Notes: generated by a model not told the origin, from the letters alone. 62,061 bases of DNA from Calditrichota bacterium (GCA_013150955.1 JAADJD010000032.1:1-62061); one strand, 5' to 3'; counted from the stretch's first letter, positions 19,649 through 41,017 are shown. Numbers and translations are program-made.

Positions 19649-20935
19649 TCAGGATTCGCTCTTCTGTTCGGATTCAATCTGGCGCAATTTAATAAACAGC
19701 CCGATGATCAACAGCGTGGTAAACAGGGTGGCAAACAGAAACCCCTTCCGCCGACGGTGATATTCCTTGATTTCCTCCAGTGCCAGTTGAATGGCCTCTT
19801 TCGCCCGCTCCAGCCCGGTTTTGGTCTTCTCCTCCACCTGTTTGGGATCAAAGGTATGCACCACCGTGCGGGCGTGAATCAGCTGTTGATGGGCATCCTT
19901 TAACAAATACTCGATGTCCAGATCATCCATTCCAATGATCTGCACCCGCTTTTTAAGCACCTTTGCGGAATCGATGGCCGTGGTTAGATCCAGCAGCAGC
20001 TGGCGGATTTGCACGGCAGCCTTGTAGCCTTCATCGCCCTCATCGTGACAATCGATGCAGGTGGACTGTTCTCCCACGCCCACCATGTCGTCATTGGTCG
20101 GCGGCACCGAATGGTAACCATGGCACTCAATACAATCGTGCAAATCCATTTTCTTGAACTCTTCGGCCATCTTGGTCTTCTGAAAGTATTGCAGATTGTT
20201 GATGTGGCAATTGCCACAGACCTGCCCGATGGAGGTCACCCCGGGGGGTAACGCACCATGATTGCCATGACAATCGTTACAGGCCGGCGCCCCCACATCT
20301 TTCTTCTTCAGCAGGGCCTGACCGTGCACACTTTCGGCATATTTTTCAAACTGATCGGTGGGAATTTTGTAACTGGCCATGTAGTCGGGATCGCTGTGGC
20401 ACTTCTTACAGGTTATGGGCACATTGGTGGGATAAACCGAAGAGCGCGGATCGGAAGCCGGAAACACCGCATGACTGGTATGACAATCGGTACAAACGGC
20501 CACCTTGGTATCGCCCTTCAGCAACAGCTTTCCGTGGCGACTGGTATAATACTGCTCTTCCTGATCCGTTTCCACCTGCGGCCGGAATTGTCGCATGAAG
20601 TTTATATCCGAATGGCATTTCCCGCAAAATCGGGGCACCTCCCGCTTGTCGGGAATTCCCACGTATCCCCGCGCAGGATCCATGGCAATGTCCATGTCAT
20701 CGGAGGTGGGATCGCCCCCGTGGCAGCCGGCACAGGATAATCCCACGCGCAGGTGAATGTCATTTTCGTGCAGCCCCTCGGGCAACGCCTCTTCGTCGAT
20801 ATGGCAGGCCACACACTGATCCACTTCCACCAGTCGTTGCAGGTTTGTGGTTTTATCATCGTCCTGGGATTGCGCCATGAGTGGGCCAACACCCAGGAAA
20901 AGACTCATCAAAATGCCCAGATACCCGATCTTCAT
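19649..20935 (-). CDS. Nine-haem membrane-anchored cytochrome c
   Basis: About 428 residues. It has a signal peptide (MKIGYLGILMSLFLGVGPLMAQ), then nine CxxCH haem sites (CVACH, CAGCH, CGKCH, CTDCH, CKKCH, CNDCH, CGNCH, CIECH, CIDCH) up to about residue 310. A coiled helical stalk follows, with a C-terminal transmembrane helix (GFLFATLFTTLLIIGLFI) ending in the cytoplasm. Extra histidines (SRHGKLL, SVHGQALL) could be distal ligands, as in the NapC/NrfH and octahaem families. ATG 20935 is preferred to the frame start at 20965 because AGAGG lies eight bases before it. As third gene after Rieske and cytochrome b, it probably replaces cytochrome c1 as electron acceptor of that complex. Confidence 0.9.
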   Translation of the reverse strand: MKIGYLGILMSLFLGVGPLMAQSQDDDKTTNLQRLVEVDQCVACHIDEEALPEGLHENDIHLRVGLSCAGCHGGDPTSDDMDIAMDPARGYVGIPDKREVPRFCGKCHSDINFMRQFRPQVETDQEEQYYTSRHGKLLLKGDTKVAVCTDCHTSHAVFPASDPRSSVYPTNVPITCKKCHSDPDYMASYKIPTDQFEKYAESVHGQALLKKKDVGAPACNDCHGNHGALPPGVTSIGQVCGNCHINNLQYFQKTKMAEEFKKMDLHDCIECHGYHSVPPTNDDMVGVGEQSTCIDCHDEGDEGYKAAVQIRQLLLDLTTAIDSAKVLKKRVQIIGMDDLDIEYLLKDAHQQLIHARTVVHTFDPKQVEEKTKTGLERAKEAIQLALEEIKEYHRRRKGFLFATLFTTLLIIGLFIKLRQIESEQKSES

Positions 20936-20954
20936 AATTGTCCTCTGAAGATTT

Positions 20955-22037
20955 TTATAAAACATATCCTAAAATCGTCATCACACCGATATACACCAGC
21001 ACCGCCACACCAATAAACTCCATGGGCTGGATGCGCCGTCCCGGACGTTCCTTCAGCGCCCAGAAGGGTACCAGCATCCAGGCCAGTCCCCCTACCATAA
21101 ACAACAGAATGCCCAGCACCTCCCCTTCAATGAACAATACGTGGCCGGGCAGCAATTTCAACGTCTGGAACATGAACATGAAGTACCATTCGGGACGAAT
21201 GCCGGCAGGAGCGGGGGCAAATGGATCGGCCTTCAACCCCAGCTCCCAGGGATAGTAGACCGCCAGAAAGACCAGAATGTCGAACACGATCAACCAGAGA
21301 ATTAAATCCCGTAACAGGAAATTGGGGAAAAAGGGAATGTATTTTTTCTTCGATTCGGGCAGATTGGCCAGGTGCTCCGGTTCGCTCATGCCGTGTTTCT
21401 GCACAAATACCAGATGCAACGCCAGCACCAGCATAAAAATCGCCGGCAGCAGGGTTATGTGAATGGCATAAAAGCGGTAGATGGTGGCGCCGGTAACGTC
21501 CGATCCGCCCCGGAGCACTTTCATGATGATGGGCCCCACAATGGGCACGGCACCTACAATTTCGGTGCCCACTTTGGTGGCAAAGAACGCCAGCTCGTTC
21601 CAGGGCAGCAGGTAACCGCTAAATCCAAAGGCCAGGGCCAGGCTCAACAAAATGAACCCTGAAACCCAGGTCAGCTCCCGCGGTTTTTTGTACGCCCGGG
21701 TGAAAAAGGTGCTGAACATGTGCACAAAGGCAAAAAAGATCATCAAATTGGCGGACCAGCTATGAATGGAACGAATCAGCCAGCCGAAGCGCACCTTGGT
21801 TAACAGAAAGCGCAAACTCTCGTACGAACTATCCGGCCCGGGCTGATAATACATGGACAGCAAAATTCCGGTGAATGCCTGAATCAAAAATAAAAACAGC
21901 GTGACCCCACCCATGTAGTACCAGATTGTATGCTCGTGCACCGGTACCTTTTTGTGCTTACCAAATTCGATCAGGGGGGTCAAATCGTACCGTTCATCCA
22001 GCCAGTCGTAAACCTTTTTAAAAATGTTCCGTTTCAT
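20955..22037 (-). CDS. Cytochrome b of a bc-type complex (b6 plus subunit IV fused)
   Basis: A 360-residue membrane protein. The N-terminal four-helix part carries the b-haem histidines in [20 protein letters not shown] and in the [23 protein letters not shown] helix. The C-terminal part has the quinol-site motif PEWY ([11 protein letters not shown]) and three further helices. Its length lies between cytochrome b6 and full mitochondrial-type cytochrome b, fitting a fused b6/subunit IV arrangement with a shortened end. It oxidises menaquinol or ubiquinol at the membrane. It starts two bases after the Rieske stop and ends 20 bases before the nine-haem cytochrome start. Confidence 0.94.
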
Positions 22038-22039
22038 CG

Positions 22040-22480
22040 CTAACCCAGATTGGTTGGTTTTTCTATAATGATTTCATTTTTTTGAATCCGCACCACGTAC
22101 GGCATTAACGGGCGTGGCGGTGGCCCCGAAATGTTTTTCCCCGTCAGATCGTACATGCCGTTATGACAGGCGCACCAGATGTGTTTGGTATCCTCCCGAT
22201 ACTGCACTATGCAATCCAGATGCGTACAGATTGCCGAAAAGGCCCGAAATTCCCCCGTTTCTGTACGAATCAACAACACCGGTTTGCGACCAAATTTGAT
22301 GATTTTACCGCTGTTGGGGGGAAAATCATCGACCTTTCCGGCCTTAACCGAATTGAGGGACTGTTCTTCCACTTTGGGAGGAATCAGGTAGGTGATGAGG
22401 GGATACAACACACTGGCCAGCCAGCCCAGTAATCCACCGCCAATTAAAAAGTTGGTAAACTTGCGTCGATTCACTTCCAT
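22040..22480 (-). CDS. Rieske 2Fe-2S protein
   Basis: A 146-residue protein with an N-terminal signal-anchor ([24 protein letters not shown]). The Rieske cluster motifs are CTHLDC and CACHNGMYD, giving the two Cys and two His ligands, followed by [14 protein letters not shown]. Aspartate in the first motif, where bc1 proteins have glycine (CTHLGC), and the short length both resemble b6f-type and menaquinol-linked Rieske proteins. It is the first gene of a three-gene unit with cytochrome b and the multihaem cytochrome, and passes electrons from quinol to that cytochrome on the periplasmic side. Confidence 0.94.
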
Positions 22481-23123: not shown

Positions 23124-24317
23124 TTAAAACACATCCGCCCGGCCATTGATGTGCAGATCCTTGCCAATAATGTTCAGATCCGCATCCACCACCCGCTGAT
23201 GACAATTGGCACAGCTGGATGCGCCCACGGGCAGATGTCCGGTGGGCGGCAACCCATGGCAGGTCCCGCATTCCGCCTGCCCGGTTTCCGGTTGATTCCA
23301 GATCACCGTCGCAAAGTTTCCCGTAATGACGGAGTCCGCATAAAACGCCGGGTACTGGCTGCTATCCCGATAAAACACAAATGCACCGTGGCAGTACACG
23401 CTGGCACAGGTAGCCTGCTCGCGATTCCACAACGGCAACACCCGACCCGAATCCGCAGCCAATGGATTAAACTGCACTTCTGCAGGCAGAGGCAAATTGT
23501 CCACATGTCCCGCGGCAAAAAGCGAATCCGGTTGCAGATGACAGATTCGGCAATCCCGCGCGTACGCTGTGGTCAGGGTGGTATCGGCCAAATGATGTGG
23601 ATGCGCCCCCACCCCGATGGCCTCCGGCAGGGTGTGATCGCCCAGATCCTTTGGTGGAGCGGCATTGGCCCACGGGGGTACCGGGGCCTCAAAATCGCCG
23701 TGGCAGGTATTGCAGGCCTCCGGCCCATTGTCCTGCGTGTGGCACCGTCGGCAATTTTTTTTGGCAATGCCCTTTCCCCCATATGTGCGACCATGACAGG
23801 GCCGACAGAGCCGCAGGTTCCACTGAACATTCTCGGCAATGTAGACGCCATGGAAGGTCGCATCTTGCTCATCGGCAAATCCTTCTGGATGGGGGTAGAC
23901 CCGGTGGCATTCACTGCCATAACAGGAAACCTTGCTGTCGCCGCCCTCAAAATTTTCGCCGTGGCAGTGTTGACAGCTGGAGAGGTCGTAATTCAAGGTT
24001 TGTTGCAGGAACCGCCCATGAAAGGCCTCGGCACCGGGTATGGCAAACCCCTCCGGATGGGGGAAGGAAATGTGGCATCCCTGTCCGTAACAACCGATGC
24101 CCGCCTTTCCACCGCGGAAATCCTCCCCGTGGCAACTCTGGCAGCTTCGAAGCGTCAGGCTACTGTCCACCAGCAGTACCTTTCCATGAAAGTTGGGGGA
24201 TTGGGTATCCATCCATCCCGCGGGATGCGTGGGAACGGCCACGGGTATGCGCTGTTCACTACAGCTCAACCACAGGGCAATCAAAAATAAGGATACAATC
24301 CGGTAATACGCTCTCAT
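23124..24317 (-). CDS. Multihaem cytochrome c lipoprotein with CxxxxCH domains
   Basis: About 397 residues. The signal ends in a lipobox-like ALWLSC, suggesting an outer-membrane lipoprotein. I count eight CxxCH sites (CQSCH, CQHCH, CRPCH, CRRCH, CNTCH, CRICH, CGTCH, CANCH) and three CxxxxCH sites (CYGQGCH, CYGSECH, CASVYCH). The pair CASVYCHG...CGTCHGLPPTGH matches the Geobacter CxxxxCH...CxxCH domain pattern. ATG 24317 is chosen over the frame start at 24356: AGGAG precedes it and the lipoprotein signal begins there. Last gene after the porin and the 12-haem cytochrome, with spacing of only 14 bases from the latter. It is the probable surface-facing component of a trans-outer-membrane conduit. 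Confidence 0.88.
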   Translation of the reverse strand: MRAYYRIVSLFLIALWLSCSEQRIPVAVPTHPAGWMDTQSPNFHGKVLLVDSSLTLRSCQSCHGEDFRGGKAGIGCYGQGCHISFPHPEGFAIPGAEAFHGRFLQQTLNYDLSSCQHCHGENFEGGDSKVSCYGSECHRVYPHPEGFADEQDATFHGVYIAENVQWNLRLCRPCHGRTYGGKGIAKKNCRRCHTQDNGPEACNTCHGDFEAPVPPWANAAPPKDLGDHTLPEAIGVGAHPHHLADTTLTTAYARDCRICHLQPDSLFAAGHVDNLPLPAEVQFNPLAADSGRVLPLWNREQATCASVYCHGAFVFYRDSSQYPAFYADSVITGNFATVIWNQPETGQAECGTCHGLPPTGHLPVGASSCANCHQRVVDADLNIIGKDLHINGRADVF

Positions 24318-24331
24318 GGGTTCCCATTCTC

Positions 24332-25252
24332 CTATTTTCCATGACAGGGCTGGCAAATTTGCTCGGCATTGGACTGGTGACAGGCCAGGCAGGCCTCCAG
24401 ATCGTTCAATGCCTCCCAGCGGTGCCTGCCCCCATCTCCGGGAATCCGATTGCTCCAGCCGGCCACATGGTTATGGGGCATGACCTGAAAATCCCGATGG
24501 CAATCCACACAGAACATGCGATCGCGATGGCAGCTGGAACAATCTTTCTGGCGTCCCTGGGCTTCCAGCGCATGCGTGAAGGCATAATTTAACGGATGGG
24601 TGAACCGTTCCAGGTTATCCCCTTCATGACAACGCTGGCAGTCCCGGGTTTGATGACAGAGGCGACAGTCCTTTCCAGCGGTCAGGGAACGGTTCTGGAG
24701 CCGCGCCAGATCGGCATGGCGATGTTCAAAATCCGGGCCGTGACTGACCGGCTTTAACGGTTCATCCGGAAGGTGGCAGCTTCGACAATCGGTCCACAGC
24801 CCCCGGCGGTCATGGCAGTCCATACAGCTGGCCATGTCCGGTAAATCGTACGCCGTCACCCGATCCTTATCTTTTACCCGGGGATGACAGGTCTGGCAGG
24901 CCAGTCCCGCCACCGCGTGTTGACGGTGTGAAAATAATCGATTATACGTATCCACCCGGGGAATCAATGCCACTTCTTCAGGTTGCTGATGGCACAGCCC
25001 GCATTCCTCCTCGGCTTCCACATCGTGGCAATCCCCACAGGCCGCCATTTCCGGAAACAGATCGTCCATCCCCTGCTCACTGCGGACCGCCCCGGGATGG
25101 CAATCCAGGCAATCCATCTCGTTTTCAACCACGTGCAATTTGTGCGAAAAGATCAGCCCACTGGACTGGGGAGACGATTGGGCAGTTCCCATCCGAAAGA
25201 GGGTCAATCCAGTTCCCAACCCAATCAGGCAAAGTAAAAGGTAGCGGTTCAT
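24332..25252 (-). CDS. Periplasmic 12-haem cytochrome c
   Basis: A 306-residue exported protein (MNRYLLLCLIGLGTGLTLF, then GTAQSS). It has twelve CxxCH sites: CLDCH, CGDCH, CGLCH, CQTCH, CMDCH, CRSCH, CRLCH, CQRCH, CSSCH, CVDCH, CLACH, CQPCH. Class III-like His patterns (FSHKLHVV, FSHRQHAV, FTHPLNY) before them would supply distal ligands. About 25 residues per haem is the dense packing of nanowire-like cytochromes. It lies 20 bases downstream of the beta-barrel gene and 14 bases before the lipoprotein cytochrome, as expected for the plug of a porin-cytochrome complex. That role is inferred from order and composition. Confidence 0.9.
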   Translation of the reverse strand: MNRYLLLCLIGLGTGLTLFRMGTAQSSPQSSGLIFSHKLHVVENEMDCLDCHPGAVRSEQGMDDLFPEMAACGDCHDVEAEEECGLCHQQPEEVALIPRVDTYNRLFSHRQHAVAGLACQTCHPRVKDKDRVTAYDLPDMASCMDCHDRRGLWTDCRSCHLPDEPLKPVSHGPDFEHRHADLARLQNRSLTAGKDCRLCHQTRDCQRCHEGDNLERFTHPLNYAFTHALEAQGRQKDCSSCHRDRMFCVDCHRDFQVMPHNHVAGWSNRIPGDGGRHRWEALNDLEACLACHQSNAEQICQPCHGK

Positions 25253-25271
25253 GGTTTACGTTTCTCCTTAA

Positions 25272-26456
25272 TCAAATATCAAACCGATAGAACAGACGCA
25301 GCAGGGCCCGTAAATCGTTGCGAAAGTATGTGTTCAGGCTCTGCTGCAAATCGGCGTCCAGCTGCAATTTTGGGCCATGGCGATAGGTCAATCCCAGCGA
25401 ATAAGCGGTGGCCTCCTCGCCAATGGCAACGGTGTGCCGCTGGAAATTGTAATAGCTGCTGTGCGCACGAAGGGTAAATCGGGAGGTGAGCGGATAGCGG
25501 ACGTCTCCATAAACGCCCAGATTCTGTCCACCAAATCCGTTTTGCAGGATAATGCCCACGTGACCCCACTGCTGGGAGCATCCCAGAATCCATTGATTGG
25601 TGATGTCGGAATCGTACCAGGTTCGCAGATATTGCAGGGAAAAAAGCCATTGATGCCAGCGGTATCCCACACTGCTGCGGAGCTGATCAAATCCCCGAAT
25701 CTGGAAGATTTGAAAATAGGAATCCTCCCGTATGCGGGGCTTCTGATGATTCCATTCCACCATCACCTGCCAGGGTTCCCGGTAATAGCCCATCAGATGA
25801 CGGAACAGCTGCACACTTTTGCCGGGGATGTTGTATTCCAGATTGGTATGATACAGCAGGTACCGGCTCAAACGACCGCTAATCCCCACTCCCGCCAGTT
25901 GATGCAGCAATTGACGCCCTTTTTGTTGATGAAGAATGCTGGCCGTTATGCGCAGCCGGGAAGACCCGGCCCAGTTCAGATAGACCCCGTAAGCCATCCC
26001 CTCGGTGGATGCATTCCAGCGCCATTGCCGATCAAAGGGAGCCCGGCTCCCCAGCAGAAACCGCAGGTTCAGGGAACCGGCGGACTGCCAGGTAACTTGC
26101 AGGGCATCGAAGGTGCCATTCCATACACCGGCGTATAGAAACTGTCGTCCCAGGCGCAGTGTTAGCCGACGATCCGTCCGCTGCCACTGAAGATACAGGT
26201 GATAAAACCGGTCCTCCCAGCGAGGCGCCGGTCCCCGATAAGCAAACCGCAAGTAGCCACGGGTTGAAAATCCGGGAAGCGCATTACTGCGCAGTTGGAA
26301 TTGGAGGACTTGATAAAAATCGGTCAACGATTCCTGATCAGGTGGTTGCCACCGGTACACCATGGATTGCAGGCTTCCCTGAAGGTGCACCTGAGCAGAA
26401 AGAGAAAAAATGAAGATCAAAACCAGAGGTAAACCCTTTTTGATGAGCGTTCTCAT
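25272..26456 (-). CDS. Outer-membrane beta-barrel, porin of a cytochrome conduit
   Basis: A 394-residue exported protein (signal peptide MRTLIKKGLPLVLIFIFSLSAQ). After it the sequence alternates polar and aromatic residues in strands bordered by Trp/Tyr throughout (LYLQWQRTDRRLTLRLGRQ, VYLNWAGSSRLRITASILH, WHQWLFSLQYLRTWY) and ends with LLRLFYRFDI, a terminal strand with aromatic residues near the C-terminus. This is the signature of a barrel of about 16-20 strands. It is the first gene of a unit with two multihaem cytochromes, matching the porin/periplasmic/outer cytochrome organisation known from Geobacter and Shewanella, though sequence similarity to OmbB or MtrB cannot be judged by eye. 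Confidence 0.8.
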   Translation of the reverse strand: MRTLIKKGLPLVLIFIFSLSAQVHLQGSLQSMVYRWQPPDQESLTDFYQVLQFQLRSNALPGFSTRGYLRFAYRGPAPRWEDRFYHLYLQWQRTDRRLTLRLGRQFLYAGVWNGTFDALQVTWQSAGSLNLRFLLGSRAPFDRQWRWNASTEGMAYGVYLNWAGSSRLRITASILHQQKGRQLLHQLAGVGISGRLSRYLLYHTNLEYNIPGKSVQLFRHLMGYYREPWQVMVEWNHQKPRIREDSYFQIFQIRGFDQLRSSVGYRWHQWLFSLQYLRTWYDSDITNQWILGCSQQWGHVGIILQNGFGGQNLGVYGDVRYPLTSRFTLRAHSSYYNFQRHTVAIGEEATAYSLGLTYRHGPKLQLDADLQQSLNTYFRNDLRALLRLFYRFDI

Positions 26457-27031: not shown

Positions 27032-27730
27032 CTACTTGCGGGCAATCTCTGCCAGCTTTTCGGGATCCAGGATTTTCAACCGTTTGCGATCGAATTCAAT
27101 GATGCCCTTGTTGCGAAATTCCGCCAGCAGCCGGTACACGGTGTAGCGATTGGAGTGGATGAAATTGGCCAGATCCTTGCGTCCCACCCGAATGTTGATA
27201 TTTCCATCCGCATCCACGCCAAAGGTGGACTGAAGGTACAGAATGGTTTCCGCCAGCCGCTGGGCCATTTTCTTGGAAGTGACTTCCACGATGCGTTCGT
27301 CAATTTCTTCCAGGTGGTAGATGATTTGTTTCATCAGTTTGATGATCAGATCCGGGTGCTTGCGGAATAGGCGCAACAGGTCTGATTTGCTCAGAAAATA
27401 CCCGGCCGTTGGTTCCAGGGCAATCGCCGTTTTGTCAAATTTTTGAAATCCGAGTAAGCAGCGTAGCCCAATTACCTCCCCATTCCCCGCAAACGCCACA
27501 ATGCGTTCCCGCTGATGAGGATTCCCTTTAATTAATTTGACCTTCCCCCGACAAATGCAAAAAATATCTTCCGCAGGTTCCCCTTCGCGGAAGATCACCT
27601 CTCCCCCGCGAAATTGTCGATAGCGTGCCCGCTGTTCCAGGGCACCCATCTCATCGGCGGGGCAGGTGGCAAACAACGGCAGGGTACGCAATGAAGGTGG
27701 TGTATGATTACTCTGAAGTTGACTTTCCAT
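27032..27730 (-). CDS. Crp/Fnr-family regulator 1
   Basis: A 232-residue protein. The cyclic-nucleotide-binding fold is at about residues 18-140 (FRGGEVIFREGEPAEDIFCICRGKVKL; VIGLRCLLG). It is followed by the long dimerisation helix (IYHLEEIDERIVEVTSKKMAQRLAE) and a Crp-type helix-turn-helix (RVGRKDLANFIHSNRYTVYRLL). Cysteines (CPAD, ICIC region, RCLLG) are not in the classical Fnr iron-sulfur spacing. It has its own promoter region and no partner gene downstream. Its closeness to the cytochrome operons suggests, but does not prove, control of respiration. Confidence 0.92.
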   Translation of the reverse strand: MESQLQSNHTPPSLRTLPLFATCPADEMGALEQRARYRQFRGGEVIFREGEPAEDIFCICRGKVKLIKGNPHQRERIVAFAGNGEVIGLRCLLGFQKFDKTAIALEPTAGYFLSKSDLLRLFRKHPDLIIKLMKQIIYHLEEIDERIVEVTSKKMAQRLAETILYLQSTFGVDADGNINIRVGRKDLANFIHSNRYTVYRLLAEFRNKGIIEFDRKRLKILDPEKLAEIARK

Positions 27731-40759: not shown

Positions 40760-41017
40760 ATGTTGCATGAAACCACAAATCACGCGAATGAATTCGAATA
40801 ATCCCAAATAATGCATTAAACCGCGAATCACACGAATGAAACCAGAAAATACCTACAAAATCGCGAATATATCCAGGGAAACATTTTCATCCAGATACAA
40901 TCCAATGTACTTTATTTGTTTTATTTGTGTTAATTCGTGTAATTCGTGGTCTAATGCATTATTTGGGTTTATTTGTGTGAATTCGCGTCATTCGTAGGAT
41001 AATGCACATCATCCGGG
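40760..41017. repeat. Composite MITE-like element, copy 14 (inverted)
   Basis: A full copy (CCCAAATAATGC at 40803 to GCATTATTTGGG at 40967) carries an extra left arm (TGTTGCATGAAACCAC to TCGAATAAT) and an extra right arm (TTTATTTGTGTG to CATCATCCGGG). The junctions AATAAT|CCC and GGG|TTTATT are the same as in the composite at 33.7 kb. The stretch 40423-40759 has no gene. Confidence 0.78.

What the first reader, a model, noticed from the sequence alone, without database searches (positions are those of the whole stretch)
23124..26456. Candidate porin-cytochrome conduit for extracellular electron transfer
A beta-barrel gene is followed at 20 and 14 bases by a dense 12-haem periplasmic cytochrome and an 11-site lipoprotein cytochrome. 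The order and composition match outer-membrane electron conduits of metal reducers, but the proteins do not obviously look like MtrABC or OmbB/OmaB/OmcB, so this may be a separate lineage of conduit. Combined with the upstream quinol-oxidising complex, it gives a route from quinol to the cell exterior.
Basis: partly seen in the sequence, partly recalled or inferred. Interest (0 to 1): 0.72.

Follow-up and report, generated by a model that had tools for sequence, protein, structure and literature searches.

The report
Porin-cytochrome electron conduit in Calditrichota
Three neighbouring genes of an uncultured Calditrichota bacterium very probably build a haem-filled outer-membrane pore that passes electrons through the cell wall; it is a divergent but genuine relative of the known Geobacter (Pcc) conduit, not a new invention.

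Summary
In detail: on the minus strand a beta-barrel gene (26456..25272), a 12-haem cytochrome (25252..24332) and a lipoprotein cytochrome with 8 CX2CH + 3 CX4CH (24317..23124), 19 and 14 nt apart. The host is a Calditrichota. The trio recurs, usually in this order, through most of class Calditrichia; barrel and 12-haem gene recur together in many other phyla. The claim that they are not OmbB/OmaB-like is wrong: the barrel profile aligns full length with the porin, and the C-terminal half of the 12-haem protein with the 8-haem cytochrome, of ombB-omaB-omcB-like clusters in Desulfuromonadia; the cytochrome match survives masking the haem motifs. MtrB/PioB is absent. The barrel models with about 22 strands and no plug, and co-evolves with the 12-haem protein. 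Only the surface cytochrome is unrelated to OmcB. This is a divergent Pcc conduit, a new member of a known kind; Pcc-like systems in Caldithrix were already noted (PMC6137239). The adjacent Rieske/cytochrome b/9-haem genes lie downstream, and the linkage is kept only in the sister species and partly in one other genome, so a full quinol-to-exterior route is plausible but unproven. Direction and outside partner are unknown.

The parts
25272..26456 (-). OmbB-like outer-membrane beta-barrel (394 aa, signal peptide, ~22 predicted strands, no plug domain)
   Evidence: hhalign 99.9%, 379 columns against Desulfuromonadia ombB-like; AF2 pLDDT 86, pTM 0.74
24332..25252 (-). periplasmic dodecahaem cytochrome (306 aa, 12 CXXCH + 12 other His); residues ~168-306 OmaB-like, residues ~30-165 extra c7-like half
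   Evidence: (masked control)
23124..24317 (-). outer-membrane lipoprotein multihaem cytochrome (397 aa, 8 CX2CH + 3 CX4CH, lipobox LWLSC; repeats FHG...CxxCHGxxFxGG at 43, 99, 155; C-terminal GSu_C4xC__C2xCH domain)
22040..22480 (-). Rieske iron-sulphur protein (146 aa), candidate inner-membrane partner
   Evidence: PF00355 2e-14
20955..22037 (-). cytochrome b (360 aa, b6 + subunit-IV-like), candidate inner-membrane partner
   Evidence: PF00033 2e-49; ExtP model 212 bits, below its cut-off
19649..20965 (-). 9-haem cytochrome with C-terminal hydrophobic anchor, candidate inner-membrane partner
27032..27730 (-). Crp/Fnr-type regulator upstream of the barrel gene, conserved at the same place in the sister species
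   Evidence: L024
28631..29341 (-). second Crp/Fnr-type regulator, also conserved in place in the sister species
   Evidence: L024

Best explanation
A Pcc-type trans-outer-membrane electron conduit. The ~22-strand OmbB-like barrel is a scaffold; the 12-haem protein enters it from the periplasm, most likely with its OmaB-like C-terminal half inside the barrel and its extra c7-like N-terminal half reaching into the periplasm to take electrons from periplasmic or inner-membrane cytochromes; the lipoprotein cytochrome sits on the cell surface, receives the electrons from the wire and hands them to an outside acceptor (mineral, humic substance, other cell, surface cytochrome). Shown: gene order, homology of barrel and wire to OmbB/OmaB-like proteins, haem and ligand count, predicted barrel, lipobox, co-evolution, conservation as a unit. 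Inferred: insertion, which half is inside, direction (outward more likely), partners and final acceptor.
For: Trio and spacing. Conserved unit: full-length 12-haem homologues in most Calditrichia, in the same order barrel-cytochrome-lipoprotein; across many phyla 65 of 76 cytochrome-A-like ORFs have a barrel-size haem-free ORF directly upstream, most of the rest being contig ends or overlapping starts. Homology to ombB-omaB-omcB-like clusters of Desulfuromonadia: barrel hits about 1e-25 to 1e-43, the 8-haem neighbour about 1e-17 to 1e-25; hhalign 99.9% over 379 columns for the barrel, 99.8% over 131 columns (31% identity) for the cytochrome; with haem motifs masked the cytochrome pair keeps 95%, six other multihaem pairs fall to 29% or less. 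12 haems match 12 non-motif His, 10 of them invariant in 17 homologues. AF2 barrel pLDDT 86, about 22 strands, no plug, within the 18-22 motifs reported for Pcc porins (PMC4245776). Barrel and cytochrome trees share their main groups; Mantel r 0.84, 0 of 2000 permutations as high. Relatives carry ImcH-like (NapC/NirT 6-haem), CbcL-like (multihaem + b561) or Rieske/cyt b modules beside the conduit, known or proposed quinol oxidases of extracellular electron transfer (PMC6295460).
Against: No expression, biochemistry or complex model; the cytochrome model is poor (pLDDT 63), so insertion is not modelled. The reference Geobacter-type loci were identified by class (PpcA-type genes above the curated cut-off in G344) and by layout, not by identity to a named Geobacter gene. 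Fe(III) respiration is not known for Caldithrix and had not been explicitly tested (PMC6137239). The surface cytochrome has no OmcB homology.
Confidence: 0.87

Rival explanations
1. Same conduit, opposite direction or another substrate: it takes electrons from outside (Fe(II), sulphide minerals, a syntrophic partner) into the periplasm, ending at oxygen or nitrate, or serves a soluble acceptor rather than a mineral.
For: The genome holds three COX1-family genes. Pcc clusters occur in bacteria that do not reduce solid Fe/Mn (PMC4245776); [quoted passage not shown] Cyc2-like iron-oxidase homologues are reported in Calditrichota MAGs (PMC9769843).
Against: ImcH-like genes, so far tied only to quinol oxidation (PMC6295460), lie beside the conduit in several relatives; the characterised Geobacter relatives work outward.
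Confidence: 0.25
2. The conduit and the adjacent Rieske/cytochrome b/9-haem genes are independent; the latter feeds oxygen or nitrate respiration and adjacency is accidental.
For: The 9-haem gene is found in 16 of 40 Calditrichia genomes but was seen next to the conduit only in G000, G001 and G036; 643-nt gap; in C. abyssi a Rieske/cyt b pair lies in the nitrate reductase locus (PMC5317091); G000 has CbcL-like genes elsewhere.
Against: In G036, from another family, the 9-haem gene ends directly at the barrel gene (L031), so adjacency exists in two families.
Confidence: 0.45
3. A conduit lineage unrelated to known ones.
For: No Pfam, NCBIfam or PDB family recognises the barrel above cut-off; the surface cytochrome has no relative with a solved structure.
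Against: Profile homology of barrel and plug to OmbB/OmaB-like proteins.
Confidence: 0.04
4. The barrel is an unrelated porin or transporter that merely neighbours cytochromes.
For: Best fold matches are usher, MOMP, OprD-type and AlgE barrels; weak Porin_4 hit below cut-off.
Against: All matches are about 10% identical with TM below 0.6; strong barrel hits pair with the 12-haem gene; co-evolution.
Confidence: 0.03

Closest known systems
Geobacter Pcc complex OmbB-OmaB-OmcB (Liu 2014; Shi 2014, PMC4245776)
   Same: Gene order porin - periplasmic multihaem - OM lipoprotein cytochrome; homologous porin (full length) and homologous periplasmic cytochrome (C-terminal half); porin size about 400 aa
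   Different: Periplasmic protein has 12 haems instead of 8 through an extra c7-like N-terminal half; surface cytochrome not homologous to OmcB and shorter
Ignavibacterium album Pcc IALB_1837-1839 (Shi 2014)
   Same: Enlarged periplasmic cytochrome (14 haems, 400 aa) with a surface cytochrome that has atypical haem motifs; 14-haem relatives of this size are in our set (L142, L169)
   Different: Not compared by sequence here; haem number differs
Conduit of probable Caldithrix abyssi (G017, L039) and pcc-like systems noted in Caldithrix (PMC6137239)
   Same: Same phylum, homologous barrel and 12-haem protein, same order
   Different: Barrel about 22% identical, small 4-haem lipoprotein, CbcL-like neighbour; a separate branch in both trees. 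Identity of G017 with C. abyssi is inferred from size (4.98 Mb, single contig; PMC5317091)
Geobacter ExtABCD and ExtEFG / OetABI (PMC6148476, PMC10553843)
   Same: Also a dodecahaem periplasmic protein, an 18-21 strand barrel and surface lipoproteins
   Different: Sequence relation not tested; the Ext and OmcB complexes are reported to share no homology
Shewanella MtrCAB
   Same: Same working principle
   Different: MtrB is a larger barrel of another family (PF11854 not found); decahaem MtrA, not 12

Membership tests
Pcc (OmbB/OmaB/OmcB-type) | porin-like outer-membrane protein of the OmbB family | tested here: met
   hhalign 99.9% over 379 columns against ombB-like of Desulfuromonadia; A1 profile hits about 1e-25 to 1e-43
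Pcc (OmbB/OmaB/OmcB-type) | 18-22 transmembrane strands | tested here: met
   AF2 model, about 22 strands, pLDDT 86
Pcc (OmbB/OmaB/OmcB-type) | periplasmic multihaem (5-14) cytochrome of the OmaB family | tested here: met
   12 haems; C-terminal half aligns with OmaB-like at 99.8%, 95% with haem motifs masked
Pcc (OmbB/OmaB/OmcB-type) | outer-membrane lipoprotein multihaem cytochrome in the same cluster | tested here: met
   lipobox Cys invariant in 14 homologues, 8+3 haem sites; surface location itself not shown
Pcc (OmbB/OmaB/OmcB-type) | surface cytochrome homologous to OmcB (not a required feature: Pcc surface cytochromes vary 4-100% in identity, PMC4245776) | tested here: not met
   (masked 29%, 13 columns)
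Pcc (OmbB/OmaB/OmcB-type) | passes electrons across a lipid bilayer | not testable with these tools
   needs purified complex
Mtr (MtrB/PioB) | MtrB_PioB barrel PF11854 | tested here: not met
   no Pfam hit in the window barrel; none over cut-off in 20 relatives
Mtr (MtrA) | decahaem MtrA/DmsE-type cytochrome | tested here: not met
   TIGR03508 17.5 bits against cut-off 192; 12 haems
ExtABCD / ExtEFG (OetABI) | homology to ExtB or ExtE barrels and ExtA or ExtG cytochromes | not tested
Quinol-to-exterior chain with the adjacent Rieske/cyt b complex | stable genomic linkage of the two modules | tested here: inconclusive
   linked in G000 and G001, partly G036; unlinked in most of the 16 genomes with the 9-haem gene

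The most novel reading that the evidence does not exclude
Calditrichota hold a distinct Pcc variant in which the OmaB core was lengthened by a c7-like half into a 12-haem wire long enough to span the membrane and part of the periplasm, ending in a surface arm whose tandem haem repeats vary in number (9 to 23 sites), and which is plugged into exchangeable inner-membrane quinol modules (Rieske/cyt b/9-haem, ImcH-like, CbcL-like), making the phylum broadly electroactive.
Probability: 0.3. Interest if true: 0.5.

Novelty: new member of a known kind. Interest (0 to 1): 0.33.

Why it matters
It places a nearly class-wide outer-membrane electron conduit in Calditrichia, a class with hardly any tested extracellular respiration, and shows that current Pfam and NCBIfam models miss these Pcc porins although profile comparison recovers them across many phyla. 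A probable cultured carrier (Caldithrix abyssi) makes the prediction testable. It is not a new mechanism.

Tried and rejected
Mtr-type conduit: rejected. Unrelated new conduit family: rejected after the Desulfuromonadia comparison. Ordinary transporter barrel: rejected. Solved relatives of the barrel or surface cytochrome: none; the 12-haem protein hits only c7-type and related proteins (12-haem 3ov0, alternative complex III subunits). AF2 of the 12-haem protein was too poor for a fold search. Complex prediction could not be run (single chains only). Promoter/terminator scan no better than shuffles, so co-transcription of the two modules is undecided. Supplementary files of the cited papers were not available, so published Caldithrix Pcc loci could not be matched gene by gene.

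Full report
Observation. The minus strand of 26456..23124 encodes a 394-aa barrel-like protein without haem motifs, a 306-aa protein with 12 CXXCH, and a 397-aa lipoprotein with 8 CX2CH and 3 CX4CH, with spacers of 19 and 14 nt. Shine-Dalgarno sequences AAGGAG and AGGAG precede the ATGs at 25252 and 24317 (sequence). The Rieske, cytochrome b and 9-haem genes (22480..19649) lie downstream on the same strand after a 643-nt gap, not upstream.

Host and conservation. The host genome (4.07 Mb, 99.7% complete) is a Calditrichota: its relatives in the named collection are mostly Calditrichota/Calditrichia MAGs. Full-length homologues of the 12-haem protein occur in most genomes of the class, and in nearly every case the same genes follow in the same order. 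Alignments A1-A3 show invariant glycines and aromatic residues in the barrel, all haem motifs except two dispensable ones in the 12-haem protein (some relatives have 11), and an invariant lipobox cysteine in the surface cytochrome. The window protein has 12 haem motifs and exactly 12 other histidines, 10 of them invariant in 17 sequences, as expected for an all bis-His wire.

What it is. Outside the class the 12-haem profile finds full-length relatives in many phyla, almost always directly downstream of a haem-free ORF of barrel size, about 390-550 aa. There the two profiles hit clusters of a 402-418 aa barrel, an 8-haem protein of about 230 aa and a lipoprotein cytochrome of 500-813 aa, once in tandem (L211), which is the published ombB-omaB-omcB layout (PMC4245776). 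hhalign aligns the two barrel families over 379 columns (99.9%) and the OmaB-like family with residues 168-306 of the 12-haem protein (99.8%, 31% identity). Because CXXCH motifs can create false similarity, the motifs were masked: the OmaB pair keeps 95% over 119 columns, whereas comparisons with the 9-haem, surface-cytochrome and OmcB-like families fall to 29% or less. The surface cytochrome is not OmcB-like; Pcc surface cytochromes are known to be extremely diverse. MtrB/PioB was not found. The conduit is therefore a divergent Pcc complex. The identification of the reference loci as ombB-omaB-omcB rests on class and layout, not on identity with a named gene.

Structure and co-evolution. AF2 gives a confident barrel of about 22 strands without a plug domain (pLDDT 86, pTM 0.74), inside the 18-22 strands reported for Pcc porins. 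Fold search finds only generic large barrels (usher FimD, MOMP, OprD-type, AlgE; about 10% identity). An empty barrel of this size would leave the outer membrane open, which fits a scaffold filled by a partner (inference). A back-of-envelope estimate (22 strands, lumen about 30 A; mature 12-haem protein about 38 kDa with haems, so a rod of about 80 A by 27 A) shows that the wire could fit (inference). Barrel and 12-haem trees show the same main groups, with the window in a 14-member Calditrichia clade supported in both (99 and 97), and the distance matrices correlate at r = 0.84. Calditrichia hold at least three conduit branches, and G010, G032 and G036 carry two conduits each.

Inner-membrane partners. 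In relatives the conduit sits next to different quinol-oxidase modules: NapC/NirT-type 6-haem proteins of the ImcH kind (L026, L030, L035, L036, L134, L169; Pfam tested on L036), CbcL-like multihaem-b561 fusions (L026, L040), and Rieske/cyt b/9-haem in the window and its sister species (families in PMC6295460). The 9-haem gene is present in 16 of 40 class genomes but was seen near the conduit only in G000, G001 and G036. The host genome also holds CbcL-like genes on another contig and three haem-copper oxidase family genes. So a quinol-to-exterior chain is likely to exist, but which module feeds the conduit here is open, and inward electron flow cannot be excluded.

Novelty. Pcc-like systems in Caldithrix were noted before (PMC6137239), and enlarged 12-14 haem periplasmic subunits are known from Anaeromyxobacter, Kuenenia and Ignavibacterium (PMC4245776). 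What is added is the demonstration of near class-wide conservation, the domain relation (OmaB core plus c7-like extension), co-evolution, and the variable surface arm. This is a new member of a known kind.

Noticed in passing
window, 18 places incl. 1202, 7145, 22977, 26978, 33904, 40773-40997: Dispersed repeat TTCGCGTGATTCGTGG: 18 matches with up to 2 mismatches against 0.03 expected; copies flank the conduit operon on both sides (22977 and 26978).
   Followed up: partly
L030:5295-7916 and L036:2708-4639: Multihaem cytochromes with an MtrC/MtrF-like domain and a type IX secretion C-terminal signal (Por_Secre_tail) lie near the conduit: probable T9SS-exported surface cytochromes.
   Followed up: no
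L030:148-2319, L027:4556-5863, window 23124-24317: The surface cytochrome varies in number of haem sites (9 in most, 11 in the window, 13 and 23 in others), with an FHG...CxxCHG repeat that recurs in it.
   Followed up: partly
L206-L208 (Desulfuromonadia family f262): A 12-haem relative follows a 485-568 aa barrel-size ORF and is followed, after a small ORF, by a ~1200-aa protein with 7 CXXCH: another conduit layout.
   Followed up: no
L169 (G018): Conduit with a 14-haem wire followed by two tandem surface cytochromes (12+3 and 9+2 sites).
   Followed up: no
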